From Alphaproteobacteria bacterium (GTDB lineage Bacteria > Pseudomonadota > Alphaproteobacteria > Thalassobaculales > Thalassobaculaceae): 64,000 bases of DNA. The position numbers and the translations under genes are program-made. The stretch lies in assembly GCA_024742605.1 (NCBI GenBank), contig JANSYC010000004.1, positions 1 through 64,000 of the forward strand, in the 5' to 3' direction. Of the stretch, positions 1 to 22,160 are shown one piece after another. Below the pieces are notes generated by a model. That model was not told where the DNA came from and ran no database searches. It saw only the letters and a program-made list of their open reading frames with translations. Positions within the stretch are counted from its first letter, which is position 1; each line of letters opens with the position of its first letter.

Positions 1-541
1 CGGCTTGCTCCACCGTTTCCCCATAAGGGAGCTCAGGGCTGAGAGATGGGATGATCGCCAGCAGCGGGATCACCGCCAGATCCTGGAACAGCAGGATGGA
101 GAAGGCGGATCGTCCGTAGCGGGTTGCCAGTTCTCCCCGTTCCGCCATGGTCTGAACCGCGAAGGCGGTAGACGAGAGCGCAAGCACCAGTCCGACCAAG
201 GCGGCGGTCTGTAGCGAATATCCGACGTAGTAGACCACGGCGCCGATCAGAAGCGCCGAAATCCCGACTTGCGCACTGCCGAGTACCAGGATCGGACGCC
301 GCAGCGACCAGAGCAGTCTGGGTTGCAGTTCCAGGCCGATGATGAACAACAGAAGAACCACGCCCATCTCGGCGAAGTGCAAGACGCCGTCGACCTCGCC
401 GACCAGGCCCAGGACGGACGGTCCGATCAGCAACCCGGCCGCAAGATACCCCAGGATCGACCCCTGCCCGAGACGTTGCACCAAGGGTACGACGACAACG
501 GCGGCGACGAGATACAGGACAATGTCTTGCAGGAGAATCAT
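1..541 (-). CDS. CPA2-family monovalent cation:proton antiporter, N-terminal part (partial)
   Basis: This is the first 180 residues of an inner-membrane Kef-type antiporter that exchanges K+ or Na+ for protons; the rest lies beyond the left edge. The reading is almost all hydrophobic helices, with the family signatures GSILGYLAAGLLIGP near residue 26, LELQP near 70, ALSSTAFAV near 121 and FQDLAVIPLL near 150. The ATG at 541 is preceded by a strong GGAGG. It is divergent from the alcohol dehydrogenase at 713. Whether the protein carries a C-terminal TrkA-N/RCK domain, which would separate KefB/KefC types from simple exchangers, cannot be seen here. The family call is firm; the ion is not. Confidence 0.9.
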   Translation of the reverse strand, partial: MILLQDIVLYLVAAVVVVPLVQRLGQGSILGYLAAGLLIGPSVLGLVGEVDGVLHFAEMGVVLLLFIIGLELQPRLLWSLRRPILVLGSAQVGISALLIGAVVYYVGYSLQTAALVGLVLALSSTAFAVQTMAERGELATRYGRSAFSILLFQDLAVIPLLAIIPSLSPELPYGETVEQA

Positions 542-6077: not shown

Positions 6078-6083
6078 GACGGG

Positions 6084-6514: not shown

Positions 6515-7318
6515 TCAAGCGAGGGTCGGGTATCCCGCACGCTCCGCCGTCTCACGCATGGTGATGATGGGTCGGTAGTCAGCGTCCACGACGGGTTTCA
6601 GGCCCCCGATCCGAAGCTCGATGCGTGCTGCGGCGCCTTCGGGATCGGCGACCGCATGGACCAGCCCGTCCTGAAGGCGTCGGACCAGCGTCCGGTCGGC
6701 GGAAGCCCGTGTCACGTAGGGAAGGGCGGGTGCCTCCGCGCTCCAGTCCAGGACCCGGACCGGCGCGACCTCGGCCGGGGCGACTTGGCCGATGAGGGCG
6801 AAGGTCACGCCGTCGAGTGCGGCGATATCGGCCTGACCCTCGGCGACCGCCGCCAGGCTCTGCCGATGCCCGCCGGTCCAAATCACCTCGGAGAAGAAAC
6901 GGCCGGCGTCGGCCAAAGGGGCCACCGCCGCCCGCAGGCAGTTGCAGCCGGACTGTGAATCGGTGCTGTTGGCCGCCACTCTACGCCCTCTAAAGGTCTC
7001 CAGGCCTGGAGAGGGATCCTCGGCGCGCACCACAAACGCGCTCCGGTATCGACCGCCGCCGCATCCCGGCGCGCGGTAGTCCGGAGCGGCCAGGGCCGTG
7101 AGCACGTCTGCAAACTCGTGGGTCAAAGGATATCCGCAGGTTTGGGTCAGGATGAGATCGGGGGAGCGCCAAACCAGCTCCCGGTCCGTGTTTCGGGTCA
7201 GCCGTCCGGGAACCTCCGACAGACCGGCCTTGGTCAGGCCGCGTGCGAGTGTTGCCCACCAATCATCCGTGGCCGCCCGCAATTCCGGCAGATCGTACAT
7301 GGGCAGCGACGTCTGCAT
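6515..7318 (-). CDS. PhnD-like substrate-binding-domain protein without signal peptide
   Basis: A 267-residue protein with the fold of phosphate/phosphonate-type periplasmic binding proteins (PhnD/TauA-like): the early ELRAATDDWWATLARGL helix, TQTCGYPL, a hinge around FRGRRVAANSTDSQSG, and AAVAEGQADIAALD. There is no N-terminal signal peptide or lipobox and no adjacent ABC permease, so it is probably cytoplasmic or uses the fold as a sensor. It starts 5 bp after the XRE regulator, implying co-translation. The pairing suggests that the two proteins act together, for example ligand capture for the regulator, but this is inference. Confidence 0.75.
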   Translation of the reverse strand: MQTSLPMYDLPELRAATDDWWATLARGLTKAGLSEVPGRLTRNTDRELVWRSPDLILTQTCGYPLTHEFADVLTALAAPDYRAPGCGGGRYRSAFVVRAEDPSPGLETFRGRRVAANSTDSQSGCNCLRAAVAPLADAGRFFSEVIWTGGHRQSLAAVAEGQADIAALDGVTFALIGQVAPAEVAPVRVLDWSAEAPALPYVTRASADRTLVRRLQDGLVHAVADPEGAAARIELRIGGLKPVVDADYRPIITMRETAERAGYPTLA

Positions 7319-7323
7319 CGCCC

Positions 7324-8214
7324 TTATCCCTTTCCAGTCGGCTTGCCCGGTGTCTTCAGGCCTTCGGCGATCTCGTAGAGTTTCTGAGAGATCATGTGGG
7401 CCTGTACGGTCGCGTGCCGGATCAGGTTGTCGAACCGTCTGCTCAGGACGCGGATATGCTCTGTGGTGTTGAACACCAAGTACATGTCACCGACGTAAAG
7501 TGCGGCACGTTTCGAGCCGAATATCGTCACCGGTGCCGCATAGTCGCCCACCGCATCGAACAGATACCAGCGAAACGACGGATACATTTCATCGGCCAGA
7601 TAGGCCGCATGTTCAATCTGTCTGATCCGAACCTCCAAGGGCAGGCCGCTCCAGATCCCCTGGCCCTGCGCGAATCCCTCGACCGACTGCAGTGACGTGC
7701 AGACCTCGATGTCCGTCTCCGGCTGACGGGAGTAGTTGAGGCGCTCCTCGGATCGGACCCTGGCCTGATCGATCCTCGGCGGCGCGTTGTCCCGAAATTC
7801 GAAGGCGATCACTTCCGGCAGTTTGATCTGATCCGGGAGAGTGGTTGGCACATAGCGGATCTTGAATCCGGTTGCTTCGGCGTGCCAGCGTTCGAGGTTG
7901 ATGTCCTCGGGTGCCCGACCTGTGGGACTGATCTCCAGGCTCTGCTCCAGGATGTCCGCGCCGAACCGCTCCTCCGCGCTGAGCCCCATCAACCAGTCGA
8001 GACTGACCTGAAGCGTGCTGGCGAGCGCTGCCGCCGTATCGGCGCGCGGCAGGCGTACCGCGTCGGTCGCCAGAATCTGAGACAAGGTCGACCGGTCGAC
8101 CCCGATCCGCCGCGCCACCTCTGAGCGGCTGAGCGCGGAGCGATCCAGGGCCTGTGTCAGACGCTCCCGAAACAGGCGCGTGGTCTCCCGCTTATCGACA
8201 TTTGAATGCTCCAT
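7324..8214 (-). CDS. XRE-family transcriptional regulator with C-terminal sensing domain
   Basis: A 296-residue regulator. An N-terminal helix-turn-helix occupies residues 15-60, with SRSEVARRIGVDRSTLSQIL as the recognition unit. A linker and a roughly 200-residue C-terminal region follow, which I do not match to a named domain; it contains a YLFDAVGDYAAPVTIFGSKRA stretch and may bind a ligand or dimerise. It is divergent from a fatty acid desaturase across an AT-rich spacer with a 14-bp perfect palindrome and TGTTTA repeats, so autoregulation and control of the desaturase are plausible. The next gene, 5 bp downstream, encodes a PhnD-like protein. Confidence 0.82.
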   Translation of the reverse strand: MEHSNVDKRETTRLFRERLTQALDRSALSRSEVARRIGVDRSTLSQILATDAVRLPRADTAAALASTLQVSLDWLMGLSAEERFGADILEQSLEISPTGRAPEDINLERWHAEATGFKIRYVPTTLPDQIKLPEVIAFEFRDNAPPRIDQARVRSEERLNYSRQPETDIEVCTSLQSVEGFAQGQGIWSGLPLEVRIRQIEHAAYLADEMYPSFRWYLFDAVGDYAAPVTIFGSKRAALYVGDMYLVFNTTEHIRVLSRRFDNLIRHATVQAHMISQKLYEIAEGLKTPGKPTGKG

Positions 8215-8218
8215 GTTG

Positions 8219-8276
8219 TGTTTATACTACATCTGTTTATATTTCGTAAATAATGTATCTTTTAGATATCTAAACA
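8219..8276. promoter_or_regulatory. Candidate operator: TGTTTATA direct repeats and 14-bp palindrome
   Basis: The 102-bp divergent spacer between the XRE regulator and the desaturase is far more AT-rich than the genes. It contains TGTTTATA at 8219-8226 and again at 8234-8241, 15 bp apart. An inverted TAAACA lies at 8271-8276, overlapping the perfect palindrome TTTAGATATCTAAA at 8261-8274. This is what a homodimeric HTH regulator would bind. The assignment to the neighbouring XRE protein is inferred from position only. Confidence 0.5.
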
Positions 8277-8316
8277 CATAAAGAGGCACCATCGGTGCTG
8301 AACCTACCGTCGCCGG

Positions 8317-9306
8317 ATGAGAAAGCATCCGACAAACGCCTTCCCTTCACCTCAGGTCGCTACGCCTTGGCCGACCTTGGAAGATCCGGCCTCAACCCGA
8401 TCCGACTTCTGGGTGGAGTGGCCGACCGTGGCGGTGGCCGGGGGGTGCTACGGGCTCTGGGCCCTGTCTCTTGTGCTGGCATCCGGCGCACTGGGAGACT
8501 GGCCGATCTGGGTCTGGGTCCCGATTGCAGTTCTTTCGGTCGCCTGGCATGCGTCGCTCCAACATGAGGTGATCCATGGTCATCCCACGTCGTCGCGCGT
8601 TCTGAACCGTCTGATCGCGGGCCCTCCGCTTCTGCTGTGGCTACCCTTTGCCAGCTACCGTGCCAGTCATTTGGCGCACCATCGGGATGACCTGTTGACG
8701 GATCCGCTCGAGGATCCGGAGAGCTTCTACGTGAGCGACGCGGTTTGGCGTGCCATCGGCCCGGTCGGACGCGCCGTCCTGACGGTAATGAACACATTGC
8801 CCGGGCGACTGGTTCTTGGCCCGGGATTCGTCATTTTACGAAGTCTGCAGGGCGGGGTTCGAGCCTTGCTCGAGACGAAGTGCGATGATCGACTCATGCG
8901 GATCCGCGCCGGCACCGTATTTTCGCTGCAGGTCGCAGCCGTGCTGGCGGTGGTTGCCGTGTCTGGGGTTTCCCTCGAGGTGTATTTTTTCGGAATCGTT
9001 TGGCCGGCGACATCGCTCATGCTGCTCCGGTCCTTTGTCGAACACCGGCCGGCGCGCGATCCGTTGCAAAGAACCGCGATCGTTGAAGACAACGGCGTAT
9101 TGGGCTTGCTGTTTCTCTCAAACAATCTGCATGCACTCCACCATGCGCGGCCACATCTGCCGTGGTATCGTCTCGCGTCATTTTACCGTCTGAATAAGTG
9201 CGACATTTTGGCTCACAACGGGTCTTATTGGTTTCCCGGATACATTAGCGTTATCAGGGCGTTCGCGCTTAAAGCGAAGGATTCGCCGCGTCATCCGCAC
9301 GTCTGA
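8317..9306 (+). CDS. Membrane fatty acid desaturase
   Basis: A 329-residue integral membrane di-iron desaturase. The three histidine boxes are visible: HEVIH at 83-87, HLAHH at 118-122, and HALHH at 272-276 followed by ARPHLPWYRL. Hydrophobic pairs lie around residues 37-80 and 200-240. It would introduce a double bond or hydroxyl into an acyl chain, or act on a carotenoid-like lipid. The start is uncertain. The ATG at 8317 is the only upstream start in frame but has a poor ribosome site, while a good AAGAGG at 8281 points to a GTG at 8295 in another frame. Its regulator is probably the divergent XRE gene. Confidence 0.85.
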   Translation: MRKHPTNAFPSPQVATPWPTLEDPASTRSDFWVEWPTVAVAGGCYGLWALSLVLASGALGDWPIWVWVPIAVLSVAWHASLQHEVIHGHPTSSRVLNRLIAGPPLLLWLPFASYRASHLAHHRDDLLTDPLEDPESFYVSDAVWRAIGPVGRAVLTVMNTLPGRLVLGPGFVILRSLQGGVRALLETKCDDRLMRIRAGTVFSLQVAAVLAVVAVSGVSLEVYFFGIVWPATSLMLLRSFVEHRPARDPLQRTAIVEDNGVLGLLFLSNNLHALHHARPHLPWYRLASFYRLNKCDILAHNGSYWFPGYISVIRAFALKAKDSPRHPHV

Positions 9307-9389
9307 CGGGAATATTTTTGCGAATCCGTTACCAAATCCCGCTTGCATAGATAAAATTTTAGATATAAACGCGTCATCCATGGATTGTC

Positions 9390-9431
9390 TAACTCTCGTA
9401 TCGTGTTTTTCAGCAACAAATTTGAGAGTTA
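9390..9431. repeat. Inverted repeat TAACTCTC/GAGAGTTA in an AT-rich spacer
   Basis: The 284 bp between the desaturase and the next regulator (9307-9590) hold no credible gene and are strikingly AT-rich. TAACTCTC at 9390-9397 is mirrored by GAGAGTTA at 9424-9431, 26 bp apart. It could be an operator of the downstream XRE regulator or a weak stem-loop after the desaturase. There is no T-run, so it is not a typical intrinsic terminator. Confidence 0.35.
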
Positions 9432-9590
9432 AATGATCAGAAAATGGCAAAACTCGATTCATATGGACCAAAAAAGAGAGTAGTTTTGCTTTTCCACTGA
9501 CCCACGATGGAATATAGTCGCGGGCGTGCAATGGTTCATCGACGGCGCGTCCATCGCTCGTTGAGAAGTTCAAAGAAGGAAAATGCCGCT

Positions 9591-10064
9591 ATGGCTTCAA
9601 AAGCTGCCGACAAGCGCAAGGACGATCCGAACTACCAGATCACCAACAACAACCCGATCGACGTTCATGTCGGTCGACGGGTTCGGCTCCGCCGGACGCT
9701 GCTCGGGATGAGCCAGGAGCAACTGGGAGAGGCGCTGAACATCACGTTCCAGCAGGTCCAAAAGTATGAGCGCGGTTCGAACCGCATCAGCTCGTCGCGC
9801 CTGTGGGACATTGCGCAGATCTTGGACGTGCCGGTCAGTTTCTTCTTCGACGATATGAGTGACGACACCATGGCGCACTCGCCGCGTCGGATGAAGGCGG
9901 GCGGCAAGCTGGATGAGTACGAGGAGAACCCGGCCGATCCGATGGCGCGTCGCGAGACCCTGGAACTGGTGCGGGCCTACTACTCGATCAAGAACCCCAG
10001 CCTGCGGAAGCGCATCACCGAGATGGTGAAGTCGGTCGCAACCGCCTTGCCGGAAGAGAAATAA
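9591..10064 (+). CDS. Small XRE-family transcriptional regulator, alphaproteobacterial type
   Basis: A 157-residue cytoplasmic DNA-binding protein. The core is NPIDVHVGRRVRLRRTLLGM, then the helix-turn-helix SQEQLGEALNITFQQVQKYE (about residues 42-61), RGSNRISSSRLWDIAQIL, and VPVSFFFDDM. This arrangement is highly conserved in a widespread alphaproteobacterial family of short XRE regulators. The C-terminal 50 residues form a helical tail. The ATG at 9591 is preferred because AAGAAGGAAA precedes it and similarity begins just after; an in-frame ATG at 9507 would add a basic, low-complexity leader. It ends in a strong hairpin shared with the convergent small gene. Confidence 0.88.
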   Translation: MASKAADKRKDDPNYQITNNNPIDVHVGRRVRLRRTLLGMSQEQLGEALNITFQQVQKYERGSNRISSSRLWDIAQILDVPVSFFFDDMSDDTMAHSPRRMKAGGKLDEYEENPADPMARRETLELVRAYYSIKNPSLRKRITEMVKSVATALPEEK

Positions 10065-10123
10065 GCAGTGGGAGGTCGGAAACGCCGCGCTGGTGTTTCC
10101 GATTGACCTAGCCGATCTACAAA

Positions 10124-10164
10124 AAACCCGCCTCTCCCGATCCAGGATCGGGAGAGGCGGGTTT
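10124..10164. terminator. Bidirectional intrinsic terminator
   Basis: A perfect inverted repeat with 20-nt arms: the left arm is 10124-10143 (AAACCCGCCTCTCCCGATCC) and the complementary right arm is 10145-10164. A-rich sequence on the left and T-rich on the right give a U-tract in both directions. It lies between the stops of two convergent genes (10064 and 10216), so it should terminate both. Confidence 0.9.
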
Positions 10165-10215
10165 GTTATGCGCCGATGCCGCGCTGAGACGCGCTCCGGC
10201 CGAAGGTCGGTTGGG

Positions 10216-10479
10216 TCAGGCGAGAATATCCAACTGCGTGCCGCGGCTGCCGTCGCTGGAGGCGGCGGGGGCGACCTGGGTCGTGTTCGATTGTGACGGC
10301 ACACTGTTGGCACCGCTGGAACTCAGGTTCGACTGCGCGGCAGAGCTCCCGGCAACCTGCTCGGACGCTTGTAGAGTCTGCGAGATGCCTTCCCCGAAGT
10401 TCCGGGTCTGGGCATTCACGCCGCGCAGCCCGGAGAGAGCTGCCGCTTGTTGTGCGCCTTGAATTCCGCCGATAGCCAT
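10216..10479 (-). CDS. Small orphan protein, low complexity, C terminus RGTQLDILA
   Basis: An 87-residue protein that I do not recognise. It has a short hydrophobic/glycine-rich start (MAIGGIQGAQQAAALSGLRG), a Ser/Gln/Asn-rich middle and the C-terminal end RGTQLDILA. It has no signal peptide, membrane segment or cysteine. The ATG at 10479 has GGGAGA upstream, and the gene ends next to a strong bidirectional terminator, so it is likely real and monocistronic. Its ends resemble those of the orphan at 60975, which starts MAIAQSISG and finishes RGGLLDVTV. Composition is reminiscent of small flagellar or secreted accessory proteins, but no assignment is made. Confidence 0.7.
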   Translation of the reverse strand: MAIGGIQGAQQAAALSGLRGVNAQTRNFGEGISQTLQASEQVAGSSAAQSNLSSSGANSVPSQSNTTQVAPAASSDGSRGTQLDILA

Positions 10480-10629
10480 GATGATCTCCCAATTGAATGT
10501 ATTTCTTATCTATCACGCAGTGTGTTTCCAAGGGATTAACAAGTCTGTGAAATCTGCGGGCCACTCCGAGAGCGCACCGCCTGGACTTCGGGTTTTGATC
10601 GTTCCTTTACGTTCGGTGGGGATTGCGGT

Positions 10630-11700
10630 GTGATGAAGAGTTTGCCGGACGGTTTCCTCGACGGCCCCACAATCTGGGGCGGGCCGTCGGTTGTGCGCCG
10701 GGTCGAGGTGATCGAGGAGCTTGCCCGCTGGTGTGAAGTCCGTGGCATCACGCGCCCGATGGTCCTCGGGGGCCGGCCGATTTCGGAAATCGATATATTG
10801 CTGCCACTGATTCATGCCCTGGAAGCGGGGGGCCTGTCGGTTCGACCCTGCGACCGGGCCCGCTCCGCCGACACGCTTGCCGTGGGCGAGGCAGTGGCCG
10901 CCTACCACCTCGATGAATGCGATGGGGTGATTGCGCTCGGAGGGGCGGTTGCGATGGAAGTCGCCAAAGCCACCGTTCTGATGGTCGGACAACGCCGACC
11001 CTTCGTCGAGTTCGTCGAGGACCGGACATCGGATTCCGAAACCGAAGGCTGGCTCGCGGTCGATGACTCCACGATCCCGCACTGGCTCGCGGTCCCGACG
11101 ACGCCGCTGGCCGCCGCCTACTGCGCCGGGGCGACGGTCCTTGCGGACGATCTGTCCCGCGCCTGTGTGGTCCGGCATCCGCTACTGCGGCCCGAACACG
11201 TCATCATCGATGCCAGCCTGACTGCGGCGATTGAGGACGATCAATGGCGGCAATCCGAGCGGGCGGCGCGTCATATCCTGGCCGAGTGTCCAACCCATGC
11301 TGCAGAGACGGTGGTGCGGATGGAGTCCGGCACGACGCTCGATCGTGAAGATCTGCTGGTTTACCTCGCGGCGTGCGGTGCCGGGCCGATCGAAGCCCAT
11401 GTCGGTCTTCTGAGGCGGGTGTCGGTGGCGGTGGCAGTGCGCTCTGGACATCGCCTGGGCGCAGGCGTTCTCGCGGCGGCCCAGGAAACGCCTGGCGGCT
11501 TGGGGGCGCTCGGTATTCACGAGGTCGAGATTGAGGCCCTGGTGTCCGCCCTATCCGGTGCCGATCCGGACACGGTTCGGCACATGCTTATGGCGGCGTC
11601 ACCGCGACCGGGGGGGCGTCCGGCAGTGGCGGCGGGGCGGCGCCGGGGAGGGCGTCGGGGCCGTCATGAGCGGGATACGAACGACGACGCGGTCGAGTAG
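10630..11700 (+). CDS. Degenerate iron-alcohol-dehydrogenase/dehydroquinate-synthase-fold protein
   Basis: A 356-residue protein that follows the group III alcohol dehydrogenase fold but with eroded signatures. GVIALGGAVAMEVAKA stands where GGGSxxDxAK is expected, with Asp replaced by Glu. AVPTTPLAAAYCAGATVLAD replaces PTTxGTGSE, and the Asp of the Dx3H metal motif is missing (RAARHILAEC). His residues in IEAHVGLL and SGHRLGAG may survive. The last 35 residues are a basic Arg/Gly-rich tail. It starts at the GTG of GTGATG, or 3 bp later. It may be a pseudoenzyme or have a changed metal site and reaction; I cannot name a substrate. Confidence 0.65.
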   Translation: MMKSLPDGFLDGPTIWGGPSVVRRVEVIEELARWCEVRGITRPMVLGGRPISEIDILLPLIHALEAGGLSVRPCDRARSADTLAVGEAVAAYHLDECDGVIALGGAVAMEVAKATVLMVGQRRPFVEFVEDRTSDSETEGWLAVDDSTIPHWLAVPTTPLAAAYCAGATVLADDLSRACVVRHPLLRPEHVIIDASLTAAIEDDQWRQSERAARHILAECPTHAAETVVRMESGTTLDREDLLVYLAACGAGPIEAHVGLLRRVSVAVAVRSGHRLGAGVLAAAQETPGGLGALGIHEVEIEALVSALSGADPDTVRHMLMAASPRPGGRPAVAAGRRRGGRRGRHERDTNDDAVE

Positions 11701-11722
11701 AGCGGGGCTGTCGCATTCGGTT

Positions 11723-12775
11723 CTAAGCTTGCGCTTGGGCATTGGCCATGCGGACCTGCCGGGTAAGAGTAGCCAAGGTCTGGACCCATTTTTCTCCTAT
11801 GAGATCCGGCGAGAACTGGCGCTTGATGACCTCCTGACCGGCCGCCAATCGGCTTTCGATGCGGCTCGCCGGGAGGGCCAATGCGGCGGAAACGCCAAGG
11901 GTCAGGTTCTCGATGACCAGTGCATGTGCTCTTAGGGTTTGATAGGCGGGAAGGGGCGAGGCGACAGCCAGACGACCGCCCGCAATCGCGGAGATCAAGC
12001 GGTTGGGGCTCTTGTGGGCCGACTGCCCTCGCGGCTCACCTGGAATAAGCACCAGATCGGCATTGGCGATCGCTCTCTGTTGGCTGGTGGTGCTCCATTC
12101 GACGAAATTCGCCACGAGCGGACCAGCGAGAGTCTCGGAATATCGGTCCAGTATCCCTTCGAAGACTTCGAGGGCTCTCGATACCATCGTAATCCGCATT
12201 GGGACGCGTTCAGCCAAGTTCTCCAGCGGCTGCAGATGCGGTTTCAGGAAGGCGGCGTTGGTCGGATTGCCGTACCAGACCAGTTCCAGTCGCTCCGGCG
12301 CATGTCTGAAACGCGCAGATGGAGGATAAAACTCGGCTTCAATCGGATCCCCGACGCGAACCGCGATGGCCCCTTTCGAGAGCCACGGACGCGCAGCCTC
12401 TCCCATTTGGGCGGTCGGGACGATCACTCCGTCCGCGAGCGGTGCCAATTGCCGAATGTGCTGGAACAGCTCGAACTGCATCGGGTCGTCGGTAATGTCG
12501 AGGATCAGGACCTTACCCAGCGCCTTCGCCTGCTCGGCGACTGCGGTATAGTCCTGAAAAACCTTTCCGATGACGATTGTCTCTGCGTCCAGGAAATGCC
12601 GGCTCTCGAGCACACGGCCCGGTGTCGTGTTCGCAACGATCTTGGCGTCCTGTCCGAAGCGATGCAGGGCTTTCATCGCCAGAACAAGCCGGATGCGTGT
12701 GCTGGCGAGGTCGGCTGTGACTTCGCCGTTCGGGTCTTTTGAAACGTGGTCATCGACGATGAAAAGGACCCGCAT
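11723..12775 (-). CDS. Glycosyltransferase-like protein
   Basis: A 350-residue protein of glycosyltransferase GT-B appearance. MRVLFIVDDHVSKDPNGEV opens the first Rossmann domain. The C-terminal domain has LVWYGNPTNAAFLKPHL, a PMRITMVSRALE strand, and a sugar-nucleotide-like KSPNRLISAIAGGRLAVAS segment. The ATG at 12775 starts exactly at this Rossmann strand with GGGAAG in front; an open frame continues upstream to 12958 but overlaps the divergent aldolase and shows no conservation-like features. The donor and acceptor are unknown. It converges with the degenerate dehydrogenase, 22 bp apart. Confidence 0.68.
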   Translation of the reverse strand: MRVLFIVDDHVSKDPNGEVTADLASTRIRLVLAMKALHRFGQDAKIVANTTPGRVLESRHFLDAETIVIGKVFQDYTAVAEQAKALGKVLILDITDDPMQFELFQHIRQLAPLADGVIVPTAQMGEAARPWLSKGAIAVRVGDPIEAEFYPPSARFRHAPERLELVWYGNPTNAAFLKPHLQPLENLAERVPMRITMVSRALEVFEGILDRYSETLAGPLVANFVEWSTTSQQRAIANADLVLIPGEPRGQSAHKSPNRLISAIAGGRLAVASPLPAYQTLRAHALVIENLTLGVSAALALPASRIESRLAAGQEVIKRQFSPDLIGEKWVQTLATLTRQVRMANAQAQA

Positions 12776-14105: not shown

Positions 14106-15419
14106 TCACTCCGGGCGTGACGCCAGTTGTTTGAGTTGCTGGTCGGTCAGTTTGGCTCCGTCGATATCCGCATCTCGTAGATGCGCGCGGGTTGTCCGCG
14201 CACCCTCGAAATCGGCACCCTTGAGATTTGCGCCTTCCAGCTTCGTTCCCGTCAGGTCGACATTCTTCAATATGGCGCCCGCCAGATTCGCAGGCCACAA
14301 GCGCCCCGTGGGCTGTCCGCGGTGGTCCTTGATTTCGACCGGCATCATGCTGGCACCGGCGATCCGCGCGTCGGTCATGTCCGCGCCCTGCAGGTTGATG
14401 CCGTCCAGCTCCGCGTCACGCAGGTCGGCCCCCTGCAGGTTCGCTCCCGAAAGATCCGACATCACCAGGTTGGTCCGTCGCATCACGGCCCCCGCAAGGA
14501 TTGCCTGACGCAGATCCGCACCCGCGAGACTGACATCCGAGACGTCGATGTTTGAGAGGTCCGCACGGGCCAGCTGGGCCCTCGCACCGCCGCGCCCTTG
14601 CTCGCGAATCCAGATGGCATGCTCGGCCAGAATATCCCTCATGGATCGGGACAGGCGCCGGCCGTGCCCGGAGAGATTGGCGCCAGCAAGATCCGCAGTC
14701 GAAAGGTCGACATTCTCGAGAATGGCACCGTGCAGGTCGGTGTTCTGCAATTGGGTCCGTTGGATCAATGCGCCCGAGAGATTTGCACCCGCCAGGTTGG
14801 CGCCAATGATCCGGGCATCCGAGAGATTTGCGCCGGACAGATCGGCACCGGTCAGATTCGCGCCCTCAAGGTTTACACCCGACAGATTGGCACCACAGAG
14901 CAGGGTCTTCTCAAGGGTCGCTCCGACCATACTGGAATGGGAGAGATCGGTGCCGGACAGATTGGCGCCGTCGATTTCCGCCTCGTCCAGATCGGACTGT
15001 CCCATATTCGATCGAACGATGGTCGCCGGTGCGGCGGGATTTCCTGAAATCAGGGCGCCGCCCCGGAGGTCCGCTTCCTTGAGGTTGGCGCCGCCCAGAT
15101 TGGCACCGCGCATGAAGGCGCCTCGCAGGTCGCTCCGGATCAGAAGGGCGCGGCTGAGGTCGGCGCCGTCGAGATTCGCGCAGAACATGTCCGCCTGACT
15201 GAGATCGGCACCGACCAGAATGATCCGCGCCATATAAGCGCCGGAAAGCTTGGCTGACCGGAGGTTGGCCTGAGTGAGATTGAATTCGGACAGATTGCAG
15301 CCTTGAAGGTTGGCCCTCTGACCGCCGCCGCCGCGTTGCAGCCACCGCTCATGGCCCGAGATGATTGCCAGGATTTCATTCGGACTCATGGTCATACCAG
15401 GATCACTCACTCGGCCCAT
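14106..15419 (-). CDS. Pentapeptide-repeat protein with two W-GRGG-RA modules
   Basis: A 437-residue protein made largely of A(D/N)LxG repeats, which fold as a right-handed quadrilateral beta-helix. Two non-repeat modules interrupt it at similar points: GHERWLQRGGGGQRANL at 22-38 and EHAIWIREQGRGGARAQL at 266-283. [13 protein letters not shown] segment sits at 368-379. The same plan recurs in the paralogue at 16391. It has no signal peptide, so it is probably cytoplasmic. Some pentapeptide proteins mimic DNA and protect gyrase, others scaffold; nothing here decides. The ATG at 15419 overlaps the upstream gene by 13 bp; ATGs at 15395 and 15389 are alternatives. Confidence 0.85.
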   Translation of the reverse strand: MGRVSDPGMTMSPNEILAIISGHERWLQRGGGGQRANLQGCNLSEFNLTQANLRSAKLSGAYMARIILVGADLSQADMFCANLDGADLSRALLIRSDLRGAFMRGANLGGANLKEADLRGGALISGNPAAPATIVRSNMGQSDLDEAEIDGANLSGTDLSHSSMVGATLEKTLLCGANLSGVNLEGANLTGADLSGANLSDARIIGANLAGANLSGALIQRTQLQNTDLHGAILENVDLSTADLAGANLSGHGRRLSRSMRDILAEHAIWIREQGRGGARAQLARADLSNIDVSDVSLAGADLRQAILAGAVMRRTNLVMSDLSGANLQGADLRDAELDGINLQGADMTDARIAGASMMPVEIKDHRGQPTGRLWPANLAGAILKNVDLTGTKLEGANLKGADFEGARTTRAHLRDADIDGAKLTDQQLKQLASRPE

Positions 15420-15775
15420 CCGTCGACGATCACGCGGTAGATCGTTGTCGGTTGGGGATCATCGGAATAAAAATGCTCGTCGATCCGCAGGGAAGCTGAT
15501 TGCGACTTGCACTGTTCCAGAAGATTGGAAAATCCGGCGCAGGCCTCAATGTCGATTTTCGTGGCGGCAACTCCGTCCATTTGCGTCGATTTGAGCGGTT
15601 CGCCGTTTCGGTCCGTCAAGTAGTAGAGCAGGAACCCCCCGGAATCCGAAGAGTTCCGATGTTTACTTATATCGTCGCAGACTCGCTCGGACAGGCGGTT
15701 CAGCTGCGCGCTGATCGCCTCCAGCATTCCGCCATCAGCGTCGGGAAGAGGGGTCTCGTCGTCTTTCGCCGTCAT
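15407..15775 (-). CDS. Hypothetical protein, upstream partner of the pentapeptide-repeat gene
   Basis: A 122-residue acidic, soluble protein that I do not recognise. It has a charged N terminus (MTAKDDETPLPDADGG), a helical stretch ISAQLNRLSERVCDDISKH, then mixed alpha/beta sequence including GFLLYYLTDRNGEPL and a C-terminal YRVIVDGWAE. It has no signal peptide or membrane segment. Its stop overlaps the start of the pentapeptide-repeat gene, so the two are almost certainly translationally coupled and likely to act together. The two cysteines in ACAGFSNLLEQC are the only such residues besides one in VCDD. Confidence 0.65.
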   Translation of the reverse strand: MTAKDDETPLPDADGGMLEAISAQLNRLSERVCDDISKHRNSSDSGGFLLYYLTDRNGEPLKSTQMDGVAATKIDIEACAGFSNLLEQCKSQSASLRIDEHFYSDDPQPTTIYRVIVDGWAE

Positions 15776-16067
15776 GAAATACGGTATGTCCTCGTCACCC
15801 TCGGAGGCAGGGCCGCCTTTTACGTCTAAGAGGCCGTCGGTGCCAAACCAACCGCTCCAGCGTCTATCTCACTCATACCGCTATAGGAAAAATGTTAAAA
15901 GTACCTTTATACACAAAACTTCTGTGAGCATGCTTAACGGGCCCTTTCAAAATGGAATCAACACATTCTCGCCATCTGGGTTCCCGAATAAAAGGTTGAA
16001 TGTAAACTGGACTTAAAACACCTGCTGATTTCAGAGTTATCCTGACCGGTCCCGAAGAGAAACCCGC
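15776..16067. other. Intergenic region, AT-rich, no gene seen
   Basis: Between the start of the 122-residue gene and the terminator of the small secreted gene. It is clearly AT-richer than its surroundings, especially 15890-16020, and should hold the promoter for the leftward pair of genes. Open frames here are short and lack ribosome sites. I see no RNA gene or repeat. Confidence 0.5.
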
Positions 16068-16104
16068 AAAAAAAATCCGGTGAACCGCAGGGGGCTCACC
16101 GGAT
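16068..16104 (-). terminator. Intrinsic terminator of the small secreted-protein gene
   Basis: Read on the minus strand, ATCCGGTGA (16096-16104) and its exact complement (16075-16083) form a 9-bp stem, extendable by GC pairs, around a 12-base interior. A run of eight Us follows at 16068-16075, overlapping the base of the stem. It starts 20 bp after the stop of the gene at 16124. Confidence 0.88.
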
Positions 16105-16123
16105 CGAATGCCAATCCCGCAGC

Positions 16124-16282
16124 TTAGCCGCCGGCAGACGGAGCCTTGGTCTGCGGGAGCTGTACGGTCTTTGTGGGGGTCTCGATCGAAACCGATTGTG
16201 TCTTGTAACCGCAGGCCTGTGCCGTGGTTGCAAGAGCGGCCAAGCCGAGGCCCAGTACGCAAGCGATTGCTAGATGACGCAT
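16124..16282 (-). CDS. Small secreted (periplasmic) protein
   Basis: A 52-residue protein with a classic signal peptide: MRHLAIACVLGLGLAALATT followed by the cleavage-type AQA and then Cys. The mature part would be about 29 residues, beginning CGYKTQSVSIETP and ending LPQTKAPSAGG. The -3 residue before the Cys is Ala, so a true lipobox is doubtful and signal peptidase I cleavage is likelier. Short exported peptides with an N-terminal Cys-x-Tyr/Trp-Lys motif are common in alphaproteobacteria and have no known function. AGGAGA precedes the ATG, and a strong terminator follows. It lies between two pentapeptide-repeat genes. Confidence 0.75.
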   Translation of the reverse strand: MRHLAIACVLGLGLAALATTAQACGYKTQSVSIETPTKTVQLPQTKAPSAGG

Positions 16283-16390
16283 GACGGTCTCCTGTGTTGC
16301 ATGATCGCGCAGAAGTAAGACTAGTTTGCTGTGGGGGTGTCGGCAAGGATTCCCCGGTCCCATTTTCGTTAGGCTCTCGTGGTCCGGTCG

Positions 16391-17638
16391 CTAGGCCGAT
16401 GCGGTTTCGGCGCTGATCGCCTTATCCAACTGCTCGATATCGACCAGGGCATCGGTCAGATTGGCGTTGGTGATATCGGCGCCCGTCAGATTGGCCCCGG
16501 TCAGATCGCAGTGGGAGAGATTGGCTTGCCGAAGGTTGGCGCCGGTCAGGTTGGCATTGACGAGCCGTGCGCCGGTGAGGTTCGCAGGCCACAGCCGACC
16601 GGTGGGTTGCCCTTTGCTGTCCTTCAGGTCCACCGGACCGATCTGGGCTTTCGTCAGGTCCGCGTTCTCCAAATTGGCGTTCGAGAGGTTCGAGCCGTCC
16701 AGTGTGGCGCCCCGGAAATTGGTTCCTTCGAGCACGCATTTCGCCAGATCGGACATCACCATCAAGGTCCCGGACATATTGGCGCCCGTGAGGTTCGAGC
16801 CGTGCACATCTGCGCCGGAAAGGTTCACGCCCTCCAACTCGATGAAGCTCAAATCCTGGTCGACCAGGATCGCCCTTTGGCCGAGCCGTCCGTCCTCGCG
16901 GATCCAGACGTAATGATCGTTGAGCCTGTCGCGCACGTTCGACGGCAGGGCATCCTCGTTGCGGACCATGTTGGCGCCGGTCAGGTTCGCGGCCGACATA
17001 TCGCAGCCGTCGGTGTTCGCGCCCGAAAGATTGGCATGTTTGAAGACGGTGTTGTCCAAGACGGCGCCCTTCAGGTTCGCGTCCTGAAGGTTGGCACCTG
17101 AAAGGTCGGTTTCGCTCAGAATGCAGCCGGACAGGTCCGCGCCGTCCAGATTGGCATTTCGCAGGTTCACCCCGGACAGATTGGCGCCTGACATGTTCGC
17201 GCCGGACAGATTGGCGTTCGCCATTGAGGAATTCGCGAGATCCGCTCCGCGTTCATTCAGGGACTGGGGCTTTCGGTCGCCTTCGTCGGTCCCGAACATC
17301 AGAGTTCCACCTCGGAAATCCGCCCCCTTCAGATTCGCACCGTTCAGATTCACGTTCCGAATGCTGGCTCCGCGCAGGTCTGCGCCCTCGAAATTTGCGG
17401 ATTTCGCGTCTATTCCGTCGAGCTGGGCGCAAAAGAAGTCGGCTTGGCTGAGGTCGCAGCGCACCAGAATGGCACGGGTCAAATCGGCGCCGGAAAACTT
17501 GGCACCTCGGAGCTTGGCGCCCTCAAGTGAAAAACCGGACAGATTCTGACGCGCCAAATTCGCCCGGCGTCCACCGCGGCCTTGTTTGATCCAAGCTTCA
17601 TGCTCTTGAAGAATACTAACCAATTCCTGCGGCGTCAT
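16391..17638 (-). CDS. Pentapeptide-repeat protein (paralogue)
   Basis: A 415-residue paralogue of the protein at 14106 with the same plan. A leading module [17 protein letters not shown] lies at 12-28. An A(N/D)LSG-type pentapeptide helix follows, interrupted near 115-130 by a [10 protein letters not shown] loop. A second module [18 protein letters not shown] is at 241-258, more repeats follow, and [12 protein letters not shown] is at 343-354. It has no signal peptide. Duplicate modules 230-245 residues apart in both proteins suggest an ancestral internal duplication before gene duplication. The ATG at 17638 follows the AT-rich 17639-17800 spacer, presumably its promoter. Function is unknown. 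Confidence 0.85.
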
Positions 17639-17800: not shown

Positions 17801-20800
17801 TTATTCTGCGGGTGCGTTGGGTGAGGCTGGGGCCGCAGGCTCGGGTTTCTTCGATTTTCCGGCCCCTTCGATTGCCACCATGAATAGCGACAGAAGTGGA
17901 GGAATCAATCCAAGCGTGAGAACCGCTGACAACGACAGTCCACCGATCACCACCGAGCCCAGCCCGCGGTAGAGCTCCGAGCCGGCCCCGGGAAAGACCA
18001 CCAGAGGCAGCATGCCCAGGACGCTGGTCAGGGTCGACATGAAGATCGGCCGGATCCGGTTGCTGGTCGCTTCCAGGATCGCGTCCCCGGGCGGCAGGTT
18101 TTCTTCGCGCAGGTGATAGAGGGTCTGGTGAACCAGCAGAATGGCATTGTTCACCACGATCCCGATGAGGATGACGAAGCCGAGCAGCGTGAGCATGTCG
18201 AGATTCTGCGAGACGTAGGTGTTCAGAAGGCCCAATCCCAGCATTCCGCCCGCCGTCGCCAAAGGGACGGAGAACACGATGATCAGGGGATAGAAGAAGC
18301 TCTCGAACAGGATCGCCATCACCAGATAGACGATCGCCAGCGCCATCAGCAGATCGAGCTGCATCACGCCCCAGGTTTCCGTCAGTTTGTCGGCGGTGCC
18401 GGACAGCCGCAGCTCGACACCCGGCGGCAGACCGGAGGCCTTGATCGGGTCGATCACCTTTTCCTGCATGATGATCATGCCCTCCTCAAGCGGCATGTCC
18501 CCCTTGATCGAGACTTCCAGGGTGATCGTGCGGACGCTCTCGCGCCGCCGGATCTCGGTCGGCCCGGAGGTGACGATGACATCGGCCAGGGAGCTGGCCG
18601 GCAGGATCATGCCGTCGCTGGTCACGACCGGCAGGCTGCCGATACCCTGGGTCTCACTGACCTTTTGGAACGGTCCTTTGAGGGTCAGGTCGATCCTTTT
18701 GCCGTCGACGGTGATCTCCGACACCCGCAGGCCGTCGTTGAACGCGTCCACGGTGACGCCGAGGTCGGTGGCGGTCACGCCATTGTCCGCCAGTTTGATC
18801 CGGTCCGGCATCAGCCGCACTTCGGGCGCACCGAGATCAAGGCCCGGGCGCGGGCGGATCTGGATGTCGTCAAGACTGCCCCGGATCATGCCGAAGGCGC
18901 GTTGGGAGATCTGGGTGATCTGCTCGAGATTGCCGCCGGAGATGTCGAGATCGATCGACCTGCTGCCGCCGACGCCGCGACCGAAGAGGGAGCGTTGGTT
19001 GAACACGCTGAAGGTACCCGGCTCGCCTCTGGCGGCCTTCGACATGACGCTCACAAGTTCACGCGCCCGGCTTCCGTCCACGGCGGCAGCGCCCGCAATG
19101 GCGTTGGCGCGGAAGGCGGCGAAGAAGAAGTGTCGGATGGTCGGGGTACCGTCTGCCGTCTCGGCCTCGCTGCCGTCCTCTCGCCAAAGCGGGCTGACCT
19201 TCTCCTCCATGCCGCCTGCGATCGTGGCCATGGTGTCCAGATTGTAGCCCGGCGGCGGCAGCAGGAACCCGAAGATCAGGTTGCTGTTTCCGTCCGGCAG
19301 GTAGTCGAGCTTGGGCAGGAAGACCGCCGTGATTCCAGCGCTTGCCACGGTCAGACAGCCGACCATCACCAGCGCAAAAAGCCGCGACCGAACCGCCGAA
19401 CGCGTAATGCCCATCACGCCTGCGTGGAACCGCCCTGCCAAATTATCGATCACCGGCATGCGCCGTTCGGTGCCGTCACCGATCTTGCCTTTCAGGAGCC
19501 GGCTGGCAAGCGCGGGGATCACCGTTACCGACACCAGGAGCGACAGCAGAACGGAGACCGAGATCGCGACGGCGATATCCCGGAACAGCTGTCCGACCTC
19601 CAGTTCCATCACCAGGATCGGGATGAACACCATCACGGTAGTCAGGGCCGAGACCAGAACCGCACCCCAGACCTGCGCCGCGCCCTTGTAGGCGGCTTCG
19701 GGGGCGGAGAGACCCTGCTGCCGCAGCCGGAATATATTCTCCAGTACGACGATCGCCGCATCCACCACCATGCCGACCGCAAAGGCCAGACCGGCCAGTG
19801 AAATCACGTTGATCGACCGGCCCAGGGCCGCCATCGCCACGAACGATCCGATCACCGAAACGGGGATGGCCAAGCTGACCACGGCCGTCGGCCGCCAGTT
19901 CCTCAGGAACAGCATGAGGACGCTGGCCGCCAGCAGGCCACCCACCCATATGTTCTGCTGAACGAGGCTGATCGCCGAGTTGATGTAGATCGTCTCGTCA
20001 TAGACCTGGGTGAGGTAAAGGCCCTCGTTCGGCAGATGCTCGCGATTGATCTCGTCGATCGCCGCGCGCACGCCTTCCATGGTCTCGATCACGTTGGCGC
20101 CGGTCTCGCGCCGTACCGGCATCGCGATCGCCGGTTTGCCCATGTGCCGGATTCTGGCGACCGGCTCCTTGAAATCGAACTGAACCTCCGCGACGTCGCC
20201 GACGGTCACCCGTGCCAGGCGCCCTGTAGCGTCGTCGCTGTTCGAGCGGAGGACCACATCCCGCACCGACTGCAGGGTCTCGAAATCCCCCTCCGTTCGT
20301 ACCGTGTAGCGGCGCTTGCCCTCGTCGACCGCGCCCGCCGAGATCGACGCATTGGCAGCCCTCAGGGCGGAGACGACGTCCGGTACGGTCAGACGGTAGA
20401 AGGCAAGACGTTCGGGCTGGACGATGACCTGCATCTCCCGTTCCGATCCACCATAGACGTCGACCCGGGTCACGCCCTCGACCCGTTCGATCCGATCCTT
20501 GATGACGTCCTCTGCGAAGTCGCCATAGGTATGGATGCCGCGGGTATTGCCCTCCAGACGCCGGAGGGTCATCCAGGCGATTGGATTGTCATCGGCCCCG
20601 GCGGTGTCCAGTGTCGGCTCGTCCACCTCGAGGGGGTAGTTGCCCACACGATCCAGGCGGTTCGCGACCAGGGTGAGCGCCTTGTCCATGTCGGTTCCGA
20701 CCTGGAACTCGAGCTCGATCGTGCCACGGCCGGTCTCCGCCGACCCGGTCATCTTCGCGAGCCCCTCCAGGCCCCGGAACTCGGTTTCCTGGCGGTTGAC

Positions 20801-20989
20801 GATCTCCCGCTCGACCTCGGCGGGGGCCGCGCCGGCCCAATTGGTCCGGACCGTCATCACCGGATTGTTCACGTCCGGGGCCAACTGGATCGGAATGTTT
20901 TCCAAGGCCACGACACCGAACATAACCACCATCAGAACGGCGGCGATGACCGCGATCGGCCGTTCGATGGAGACGCGGATGATGTCCAT
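17801..20989 (-). CDS. RND-family efflux pump inner-membrane subunit
   Basis: A 1062-residue inner-membrane transporter of the AcrB/HAE1 superfamily, with one N-terminal helix, a periplasmic porter domain, TM2-6, a second porter domain and TM8-12. It should extrude hydrophobic compounds using the proton gradient, together with the fusion protein just upstream. Departures from AcrB are visible: the TM4 pair Asp407-Asp408 reads Asp410-Ala411 (GMVVDAAIVVLEN), and the TM10 lysine (Lys940) reads Asn947 (GIVVNNAILLV). The ATG at 20989 sits 10 bp after the fusion-protein stop with AGGGG before it. No outer-membrane channel gene is adjacent. Confidence 0.92.
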   Translation of the reverse strand: MDIIRVSIERPIAVIAAVLMVVMFGVVALENIPIQLAPDVNNPVMTVRTNWAGAAPAEVEREIVNRQETEFRGLEGLAKMTGSAETGRGTIELEFQVGTDMDKALTLVANRLDRVGNYPLEVDEPTLDTAGADDNPIAWMTLRRLEGNTRGIHTYGDFAEDVIKDRIERVEGVTRVDVYGGSEREMQVIVQPERLAFYRLTVPDVVSALRAANASISAGAVDEGKRRYTVRTEGDFETLQSVRDVVLRSNSDDATGRLARVTVGDVAEVQFDFKEPVARIRHMGKPAIAMPVRRETGANVIETMEGVRAAIDEINREHLPNEGLYLTQVYDETIYINSAISLVQQNIWVGGLLAASVLMLFLRNWRPTAVVSLAIPVSVIGSFVAMAALGRSINVISLAGLAFAVGMVVDAAIVVLENIFRLRQQGLSAPEAAYKGAAQVWGAVLVSALTTVMVFIPILVMELEVGQLFRDIAVAISVSVLLSLLVSVTVIPALASRLLKGKIGDGTERRMPVIDNLAGRFHAGVMGITRSAVRSRLFALVMVGCLTVASAGITAVFLPKLDYLPDGNSNLIFGFLLPPPGYNLDTMATIAGGMEEKVSPLWREDGSEAETADGTPTIRHFFFAAFRANAIAGAAAVDGSRARELVSVMSKAARGEPGTFSVFNQRSLFGRGVGGSRSIDLDISGGNLEQITQISQRAFGMIRGSLDDIQIRPRPGLDLGAPEVRLMPDRIKLADNGVTATDLGVTVDAFNDGLRVSEITVDGKRIDLTLKGPFQKVSETQGIGSLPVVTSDGMILPASSLADVIVTSGPTEIRRRESVRTITLEVSIKGDMPLEEGMIIMQEKVIDPIKASGLPPGVELRLSGTADKLTETWGVMQLDLLMALAIVYLVMAILFESFFYPLIIVFSVPLATAGGMLGLGLLNTYVSQNLDMLTLLGFVILIGIVVNNAILLVHQTLYHLREENLPPGDAILEATSNRIRPIFMSTLTSVLGMLPLVVFPGAGSELYRGLGSVVIGGLSLSAVLTLGLIPPLLSLFMVAIEGAGKSKKPEPAAPASPNAPAE

Positions 20990-20999
20990 GTCTGGCCCC

Positions 21000-22160
21000 T
21001 CAGCCCTTGCTTGCCGCAGGCGCCTGGCTGGTCTGGTCCGCACCGGTTGTCACGGCGTCGCCGTCCCGCAGTCGCTCATTGCCGCGGACCACAACCTCGT
21101 CCCCGTCCGCCAGACCTTCGATCACCTCAAAGCGCTGGCCGACGGACTCACCAAGGATGATGGTCCGGGCCTCGACTTTGCCGTCTTTGACGACGAAGGC
21201 CACGTTGCGGCTGCCCTGCACGGTAATCGCGTCCTTCTGAACGGTCAGGACATCGCGTTTCTCGCCGACCGGAACGTGCACCGAGACCGACTGATTGCTG
21301 ATCAGCTTGACGCCGGTATCTTGTAATTGCGGCACGAAGCGGACCGCCCGGGTCCGGGTCCGCGGGTTCTCCTCGGGCACCACCGCGCGAACGACGGCCG
21401 GCACATGCCCGCCTGGCTGGAGGTGGGCGTCCACCATGCCGCCCGCCTGAAGACCGTCGGTCCGGGTGGTCGGCACATCGGCCTCGATCTCCAGTTCCAC
21501 ATCGTTCAGCAGCGTGACCAGCGGATCGCCGATCCGGATGTAGCTGCCTTCCACCGCATGGCGGACCGTGACCACGCCGGGGAAGGGAGCCCGGATGACA
21601 GTGTCTTCCAGGGCGATCTCGGCCAGGGCCAACTGCGCGTCCGCCCGCGCCAAATCCGCCATTGAGGCGGCGAGGTCGGCGGTGCTGCTGTCCACATCGC
21701 GCTGGAGATCCTGGGCCAGGTCCTTCCGGAACGCAGTCGAGCCTCGCAGGCTGTTCTGGCGCTGCAGGGCCTGTTTGAACTTGGCAAGGGTCGCTTTCTG
21801 GCTGTCGACCCGCGCCTGAGCGGCGTTCAGTTCGGCCAGACGCAGACGGCGTTCGCTGGCCATACGGTCGTCGGACAGGCGCACCAGGATCTGATCGCGC
21901 TCGACCCGATCGCCGACCTGAACCTCGACGATCGCGACCCGCTCGGCAATGCGTGTGGCGAGAATGCCGGACTGGCGCGCCACCACCCGCCCCAGCACCT
22001 CGACGGTCTGCAACATGGGCTCGACCCGGACCGTGTCGGTGACCACCTGGGCGGGACCGCGCTGGGCCTGCGCCGGTCCGGACAATCCGCACACCAGAAC
22101 CGCGAGCCCGACCACCGCGACCGCTCCAAGGCGTTGCAGGTCCCGAATAAGAAACGGCAT
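21000..22160 (-). CDS. RND efflux periplasmic adaptor (membrane fusion protein)
   Basis: A 386-residue periplasmic adaptor. A signal sequence (MPFLIRDLQRLGAVAVVGLA, cleavage near AQA) is followed by a first barrel/lipoyl half, ILATRIAERVAIVEVQVGDRV. A helical hairpin covers roughly residues 95-175, rich in Ala/Gln/Lys coiled-coil sequence. The second lipoyl half is DTVIRAPFPGVVTVRHAVEG, then beta-barrel and membrane-proximal domains follow, ending in EVIEGLADGDEVVVRGNERL. It connects the RND pump to a TolC-like channel encoded elsewhere. It is the first gene of the two-gene operon. No regulator is adjacent. Confidence 0.9.
   Translation of the reverse strand: MPFLIRDLQRLGAVAVVGLAVLVCGLSGPAQAQRGPAQVVTDTVRVEPMLQTVEVLGRVVARQSGILATRIAERVAIVEVQVGDRVERDQILVRLSDDRMASERRLRLAELNAAQARVDSQKATLAKFKQALQRQNSLRGSTAFRKDLAQDLQRDVDSSTADLAASMADLARADAQLALAEIALEDTVIRAPFPGVVTVRHAVEGSYIRIGDPLVTLLNDVELEIEADVPTTRTDGLQAGGMVDAHLQPGGHVPAVVRAVVPEENPRTRTRAVRFVPQLQDTGVKLISNQSVSVHVPVGEKRDVLTVQKDAITVQGSRNVAFVVKDGKVEARTIILGESVGQRFEVIEGLADGDEVVVRGNERLRDGDAVTTGADQTSQAPAASKG

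What the first reader, a model, noticed from the sequence alone, without database searches (positions are those of the whole stretch)
14106..17638. Two pentapeptide-repeat paralogues with a repeated W-GRxG-RA module
Both proteins carry two copies of an [E/D]HxxWIxxxGRxGxRAxL-like module spaced 230-245 residues apart and a shared [12 protein letters not shown] segment, embedded in beta-helix repeats. The plan implies internal duplication followed by gene duplication. The modules are not pentapeptide-like and may be a binding surface or dimer contact. I do not know a described domain with this pattern. One copy is coupled to an unrecognised 122-residue partner.
Basis: partly seen in the sequence, partly recalled or inferred. 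Interest (0 to 1): 0.55.

Follow-up and report, generated by a model that had tools for sequence, protein, structure and literature searches.

The report
Double-capped pentapeptide-repeat proteins and partner
The repeated motif looks like the ordinary starting cap of a spiral-shaped protein, used twice in one chain; this two-cap design is a widespread, seemingly unnamed protein family in one class of bacteria, here kept next to an unknown small protein.

Summary
Both proteins carry two copies of an H-x-x-W…G-x-x-G-x-R-A-x-L module, 229 and 244 residues apart, plus an identical [12 protein letters not shown]. The reading changes. The module is most likely the N-terminal helical cap of a pentapeptide-repeat beta-helix: the predicted structure has a helix at each copy (3-17, 233-247), and the same sequence starts single-cap pentapeptide proteins of phages of Salmonella, Staphylococcus, Eggerthella and Blautia. 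Unusual is the second cap inside the chain, giving two capped beta-helices in tandem. A second-module profile matched 149 of 385 Alphaproteobacteria (105 at E<=1e-8); this genome has ten such genes. None of the 10 matching genomes outside the class showed a second cap. The 122-residue partner matches no family but occurs in six families, directly upstream of one two-cap gene in every locus read; the other two-cap gene often precedes it. A 52-residue predicted secreted protein and a terminator-like hairpin lie between them in the window. An RND efflux operon lies upstream in two families, not in three others. Best explanation: cytoplasmic double-capped binding scaffolds acting with the partner; their target is unknown. 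New variant of a known kind.

The parts
16391..17638 (-). PRP-A (P0002), 415 aa, two-cap pentapeptide-repeat protein
17555..17605 (-). PRP-A cap module 1 (residues 12-28), end of helix 3-17 plus entry strand
16865..16918 (-). PRP-A cap module 2 (residues 241-258), helix 233-247
16577..16612 (-). [16 protein letters not shown] (residues 343-354), overlapping the second strand of a hairpin (336-339/345-350) inserted in the second beta-helix
16124..16282 (-). Unannotated small ORF, 52 aa, predicted secreted (signal-peptide-like N terminus, read by eye)
16074..16105 (-). Intrinsic-terminator-like hairpin, 13 pairs then a T run, after PRP-A and the small ORF
   Evidence: 7 such sites found in the stretch against 4.2 in shuffles; this one has the longest stem
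15407..15775 (-). Partner (P0003), 122 aa, no family match; conserved core GEPL...RID.HFY...IYRVIVDGW
14106..15419 (-). PRP-B (P0001), 437 aa (likely start at residue 9 or 11), two-cap pentapeptide-repeat protein
15306..15356 (-). PRP-B cap module 1 (residues 22-38)
14571..14624 (-). PRP-B cap module 2 (residues 266-283)
14283..14318 (-). [16 protein letters not shown] (residues 368-379)
17801..21043 (-). RND efflux permease (ACR_tran), upstream on the same strand; upstream of the cassette in two families
21000..22160 (-). RND periplasmic adaptor (RND_mfp), next to the permease

Best explanation
Each module is an N-terminal cap: a helix ending in H-x-x-W, a glycine turn, and R-A-x-L as the first strand. 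It closes the open end of a pentapeptide beta-helix and sets its register. The proteins are two capped beta-helices in one chain, about 9 coils then about 6, the second bearing the hairpin insert that holds [12 protein letters not shown]. They are cytoplasmic and most likely work as protein-binding scaffolds through the faces and inserted loops of the beta-helix, as HetL does with HetR, not through the caps. The 122-residue partner most likely acts together with PRP-B, and PRP-A in the same process. Shown: motif, two-cap plan, conservation, gene linkage. Predicted: the fold. Inferred: structural role of the cap, cytoplasmic location, scaffold function, complex with the partner.
For: AF2 model of P0002 (19 sequences, mean pLDDT 85.6) has its only two long helices at 3-17 and 233-247, at the two modules, and a hairpin at 336-350. 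It matches solved pentapeptide proteins over either half: HetL 3du1 Z 29.8, 1.6 A over 199 residues, range 1..247; Rfr23 2o6w Z 19.7, 1.4 A over 126 residues, range 231..385 (ranges give first and last aligned residue only, so that the helices superpose is likely, not shown). The module starts single-cap proteins read from phages of Salmonella, Staphylococcus, Eggerthella, Blautia and Yersinia and from bacteria (L069; L129). PHROG 7713 aligns from profile position 4 to P0002 residue 1. In 97 distinct two-cap proteins the H-to-RA spacing is 12 in module 1 (65 of 97) and 13 in module 2 (81 of 97). Partner: a pentapeptide gene lies directly downstream in 12 of 12, 9 of 9 and 11 of 11 loci (one of the 11, L104, is cut by the contig end after the first cap); the sets overlap. 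No signal-peptide-like start in either PRP (by eye). HetL binds HetR by beta-helix faces 2 and 3 (PMC7476756, passages).
Against: pTM is 0.57, so how the two beta-helices sit relative to each other is not known. The second cap keeps W where module 1 has Y or F in 29 of 97, which may mean a function of its own; but H in both and W in module 2 were required by my selection pattern. Not every pentapeptide protein has this cap: Caulobacter phage GB2A's does not (L096). No interaction between partner and PRP was measured or modelled. Partner is missing from most genomes with second-module matches (11 of 372 versus 149 of 385), so the family as a whole does not need it.
Confidence: 0.68

Rival explanations
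1. The modules are a binding or dimer-contact surface. The second cap in particular would recruit a partner, and its pairing with the first would build a composite site.
For: Module 2 is strongly kept between distant paralogues: G at position 8 in 98% and at position 11 in 100% of 97 proteins, W in all (W and H, and in part the first G, were selected for); partner genes lie beside two-cap genes.
Against: The same sequence occurs singly at the N terminus of phage and bacterial pentapeptide proteins in which I saw no second copy; the model places both copies as helices heading each beta-helix.
Confidence: 0.15
2. Topoisomerase protection: the proteins are Qnr/MfpA-like DNA mimics that guard gyrase.
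For: Same fold (MfpA 2bm5 Z 23.5, QnrB1 2xty Z 23.9); net acidic (P0002: 36 K+R, 50 D+E; P0001: 42 and 50); an efflux operon lies upstream.
Against: NCBIfam Qnr and MfpA models are far below cut-off (P0001: 100 of 240 and 113 of 360 bits). A head-to-tail tandem lacks the two-fold symmetry of the Qnr/MfpA dimers (recalled). Up to 18 module matches in one genome argues against one shared target.
Confidence: 0.05
3. The cassette regulates, or is regulated with, the adjacent RND pump or envelope stress.
For: The permease lies upstream in 8 of 9 loci L026-L034 (in L033 the contig ends before it could be seen) and in family f97 (L149, 68% identical); a PAS histidine kinase is divergent to the partner in f135 and f119.
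Against: In L027 and L032 a metallo-beta-lactamase-fold gene on the other strand stands between permease and PRP-A, and L033 starts inside its relative. No permease match in the stretches read of f135, f119 and one f122 genome. In 40 other loci the commonest neighbour families are each in only 4. A terminator-like hairpin separates PRP-A from the partner in the window.
Confidence: 0.17
4. The two-cap proteins arose by fusion of two different single-cap genes, not by internal duplication.
For: Module 1 and module 2 differ by one residue in H-to-RA spacing (12 versus 13), and both spacings are seen in the single-cap phage proteins.
Against: In P0002 both halves carry a loop insert 94-98 residues after the cap, as duplication would leave, though the loop sequences differ; modules are close as profiles.
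Confidence: 0.4

Closest known systems
Pentapeptide repeat family, Pfam PF00805
   Same: Repeats over nearly the whole of both proteins, E about 1e-80; predicted beta-helix matching solved pentapeptide proteins
   Different: Two beta-helices in one chain, each with its own cap; the module alone gets only weak repeat matches (6 of 13 members)
HetL (PDB 3du1), Nostoc regulator that binds HetR
   Same: Best natural structural match, Z 29.8, range from model residue 1; P0002 scores 242 bits on the HetL model, cut-off 260
   Different: Single beta-helix; cap without H-x-x-W (read from the designed beta1 chain, whose N terminus I recall as HetL's)
PHROG 7713, phage pentapeptide proteins of unknown function
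   Same: Profile begins at the cap and aligns from P0002 residue 1
   Different: 103-position profile; the phage proteins read here have one cap
YjbI-type secreted pentapeptide proteins (Caulobacter)
   Same: Alphaproteobacterial pentapeptide proteins, linked to antibiotic response (PMC12864828, passages)
   Different: 183 residues with secretion signal and Cys pairs; the window proteins have no such N terminus
Alr5209 family (NCBIfam NF052603)
   Same: Both proteins exceed its cut-off: 195 and 185 bits against 125
   Different: Six stretches each of a 113-position model, on the repeats; size and architecture differ

Membership tests
Pentapeptide repeat proteins (PF00805) | At least eight consecutive pentapeptide repeats, A(D/N)LXX | tested here: met
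   E 2.4e-79 and 1.2e-80, 12 and 9 stretches
Pentapeptide repeat proteins (PF00805) | Right-handed quadrilateral beta-helix | tested here: met
   predicted only:
Qnr / MfpA gyrase protectors | NCBIfam curated score | tested here: not met
   Qnr 100 and 94.5 bits against 240; MfpA 113 and 108.5 against 360
Qnr / MfpA gyrase protectors | Binds gyrase and changes its activity | not testable with these tools
   -
HetL equivalogue | NCBIfam NF047416 cut-off 260 bits | tested here: not met
   187 (P0001) and 242 (P0002)
Alr5209 family | NCBIfam NF052603 cut-off 125 bits | tested here: met
   195 and 185 bits; judged a repeat effect
Alr5209 family | Single short beta-helix of four coils, 129 aa | tested here: not met
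   (415 aa, two predicted beta-helices); size of Alr5209 from PMC8145042 passages
YjbI-type secreted pentapeptide proteins | N-terminal secretion signal | tested here: not met
   N termini begin with the cap helix; read by eye, no signal-peptide program run
Known anti-phage defence systems (PADLOC-DB 2.0.0) | Match to a defence-protein profile | tested here: not met
   none up to E 0.01 for the two PRPs, partner or small ORF
PHROG 7713 | Profile match that includes the cap | tested here: met
   P0002 1-73 to profile 4-77 of 103

The most novel reading that the evidence does not exclude
PRP-A, the 52-residue secreted peptide, the 122-residue partner and PRP-B form a peptide-sensing switch that sets the RND pump or envelope state. 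The two-cap scaffolds would hold or release the partner in response to the peptide, in the logic of HetL-HetR-PatS. The ten paralogues would be parallel, insulated scaffolds of the same kind with other partners.
Probability: 0.06. Interest if true: 0.72.

Novelty: new variant of a known kind. Interest (0 to 1): 0.42.

Why it matters
Pentapeptide proteins are a very large bacterial family with few known partners. Here is a well-defined subfamily with a fixed two-domain plan, up to 18 module matches per genome, spread over many families of Alphaproteobacteria and, as far as my searches show, unnamed. The conserved cassette hands experimenters a candidate binding partner for a pentapeptide protein, which is the usual missing piece. 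The cap is also a cheap sequence signature for finding where such domains begin, and for splitting multi-domain ones.

Tried and rejected
Looked for an annotated domain: Pfam on whole proteins and on 13 modules alone, NCBIfam, PDB by profile (pentapeptide chains match only the repeat tail, from about position 24; weak hits to acetyltransferase Pat, positions 9-22, E 0.03, and two or three others were judged chance). Partner: no Pfam, NCBIfam, PADLOC or PHROG match at the thresholds used, and no PDB sequence match better than E 0.67; one of 12 relatives had a Pfam hit at E 0.32. Its model (pLDDT 76) gave no Foldseek match better than E 0.48 and best VIA Z 5.3, so no fold name is claimed; Alba, SpoVS, R3H and kinase-ATPase look-alikes were not pursued. 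The viral fold library returned phage pentapeptide proteins and general beta-helices.

Function by neighbours: 40 loci from 39 genomes, picked from second-module matches, had heterogeneous neighbours; the commonest clusters were each in 4 of 40: an unnamed protein, a cluster with DctM transporter subunits and a cluster with short-chain dehydrogenases (2 of 4 of each of the last two scanned). My simple gene caller missed the pentapeptide gene in L131 and L146 and made false pentapeptide calls (L110 1020 aa, L139 667 aa). The unnamed protein was compared with the partner and is unrelated. Long frames (L091, L118, L130, L131) were read by eye, not scanned; the extra length looked like upstream read-through. 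L129 is a single-cap protein with a membrane-like middle.

Internal duplication versus fusion: not settled; caps are too short for a tree and the repeats too alike. The Azospirillum relatives (L093-L095) have poorly kept modules and were left out of the 97. [12 protein letters not shown] is not universal: P[TS]G[RKT] in 35 and [GT]R...P in 47 of 97 at that place.

Literature on an H-x-x-W cap, on two-domain pentapeptide proteins of Alphaproteobacteria, or on this cassette: none seen in the listings (open-licence papers only).

Changed on re-checking: the efflux reading was lowered from 0.20 to 0.17, because in L027 and L032 another gene lies between permease and PRP-A.
Full report
Observation. 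The two proteins, their modules and the shared [12 protein letters not shown] are as described. The module pattern occurs four times in the six frames of the window, all in these two proteins, and 14 times in 200,000 shuffles of them.

What the module is. Pfam and NCBIfam see pentapeptide repeats; the modules alone get the repeat family in 6 of 13 and one chance hit. The structure model of P0002 (19 sequences, mean pLDDT 85.6, pTM 0.57) has one long helix at 3-17 and one at 233-247, each ending at or just after the H-x-x-W of a module, followed by a turn and the first beta-coil; a hairpin at 336-339/345-350 carries most of [12 protein letters not shown]. The model matches HetL over range 1-247 and Rfr23 over range 231-385 (first and last aligned residues only). 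N-terminal helical caps are known in solved pentapeptide proteins (PMC8145042, passages). The same sequence begins single-cap proteins: Salmonella phage Salfasec13b, Staphylococcus phage Remus, Eggerthella phage PMBT5, Blautia phage Montmirail (a 97-codon ORF) and Yersinia phage P400 (a 48-codon ORF). Of six phage proteins read, the one from Caulobacter phage GB2A lacks it; four of the five that have it were picked by the cap query. That 39-residue query finds 76 phage records at E 0.01 and 27 plasmid records at E 0.001. PHROG 7713 includes the cap. So the module is most likely a cap, catalogued but unnamed; the second, internal copy is what is special.

How widespread. The window's genome holds ten two-cap proteins, some with Y or F for W in the first module and with a decayed second module in L007. 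A profile of the second module matched 149 of 385 Alphaproteobacteria, up to 18 matches in one genome; 44 of the 149 have a best E weaker than 1e-8 (hand count) and may rest on the repeat tail. Of 30 loci taken from the best matches, 25 show both caps, three are cut or incomplete (L036, L049, L054), two (L047, L048) show only the second by pattern. In a sample of 299 genomes of the phylum, 25 matched; 10 of these lie outside the class, nine by the repeat tail only and one (L069) with a single N-terminal cap; some class members matched without a recognisable H-x-x-W (L070, L073, L078, L087). Across 97 distinct two-cap proteins the H-to-H distance is 229-234 in 36 and 243-246 in 40; H to RA is 12 in module 1 (65 of 97) and 13 in module 2 (81 of 97). 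These 97 were chosen by a pattern that required H in both and W in the second, and five plasmid and phage loci (L093-L097) were left out. A tree puts PRP-A and PRP-B in separate clades of 19 and 18 rows, each spanning families f1, f97, f122 and f135. Of the other eight paralogues of this genome, L005 to L008 stand nearest to proteins of other families (L008 on a long, unsure branch), L003 and L004 pair with each other next to one of f97, and L009 and L010 pair with each other (quick method, 46 of 94 inner branches well supported, 29 open). The two-cap plan and the split between A and B are therefore old.

The cassette. The partner (no family match) has relatives in 17 of 61 near genomes, all of family f1; in nine loci of the named collection, eight titled alphaproteobacterial (three of them Thalassobaculum or Thalassobaculaceae) and one only Proteobacteria; and in 11 of 372 genomes of the class, in six families. 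A pentapeptide gene follows it directly in the loci read: 12 of 12, 9 of 9, 11 of 11; both caps are seen in each but L104, which is cut by the contig end. The sets overlap. PRP-A precedes it in 11 of 12 and 8 of 9; the two exceptions (L025, L034) are probably one genome, since the contigs have the same length. In family f97 PRP-A, partner and PRP-B are packed, with 8 bp between PRP-A's stop and the partner's start. In f135 a histidine-kinase gene stands between PRP-A and the partner, and a kinase of the same cluster is next to the partner in f119 (one of the four was scanned by Pfam). An RND permease lies upstream in 8 of 9 named loci (L033 ends too soon) and in f97, but in L027 and L032 a metallo-beta-lactamase-fold gene on the other strand intervenes, and no permease was matched near the cassette in f135, f119 or one f122 genome. 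So partner and PRP-B are a conserved pair; PRP-A and the pump are frequent but not constant company.

A gene not in the finding. Between PRP-A and partner a 52-residue ORF (16124-16282, -) begins like a signal peptide and is followed by a terminator-like hairpin (16105-16074, 13 pairs). The stretch held 7 such sites against 4.2 in shuffles, but the others have 5-8 pairs; no promoter-like site was found. Relatives (44-54% identical) sit in the same gap in L027, L028, L030, L031 and were not found in L026, L029, L032, L033. In 61 near genomes it matched in six of the family, each once and directly upstream of the partner, plus one weak match (E 0.008) elsewhere.

Mechanism. Shown: sequence, conservation, linkage. 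Predicted: two capped beta-helices. Inferred: the cap is structural; the proteins are cytoplasmic scaffolds that bind by the faces and loops of the beta-helix, as HetL binds HetR through faces 2 and 3 (PMC7476756, passages); partner and PRP-B act together. The bound target, and any role in efflux, are open. Gyrase protection is unlikely: Qnr and MfpA scores are far below cut-off.

Verdict. The surprise moves from the module to the family: a large, old two-cap family that I could not find described, with one conserved, unexplained partner.

Noticed in passing
window 16124-16282 (-) and 16074-16105 (-): Unannotated 52-aa predicted secreted protein plus terminator-like hairpin between PRP-A and the partner; among 61 near genomes it was matched only in this cassette (six genomes), apart from one weak match.
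   Followed up: partly
L135 (G237), 5561-12325: Five two-cap pentapeptide genes in a row on one strand, a local expansion.
   Followed up: no
L110 4409-5611, L116 3863-5137, L128 4381-5577, L132 6954-8477: An unnamed 400-500 aa protein family without Pfam match lies directly beside a two-cap gene in 4 of 40 loci, in four different families, in varying orientation.
   Followed up: partly
L150 6295-7833; L152, L156, L157: A PAS histidine kinase (best NCBIfam match DivJ, far below cut-off; only L150 scanned) is divergent to the partner gene in two families.
   Followed up: partly
L011 (G000:C66): The same genome has a pentapeptide protein with a signal-peptide-like start, perhaps of the YjbI type known from Caulobacter.
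   Followed up: no
L027 5235-6281 (-), L032 997-2049 (-): A metallo-beta-lactamase-fold gene stands between the RND permease and PRP-A in some relatives.
   Followed up: partly
L024 (G004:C59): The partner match was flagged with one stop codon inside the matched stretch in this genome.
   Followed up: no
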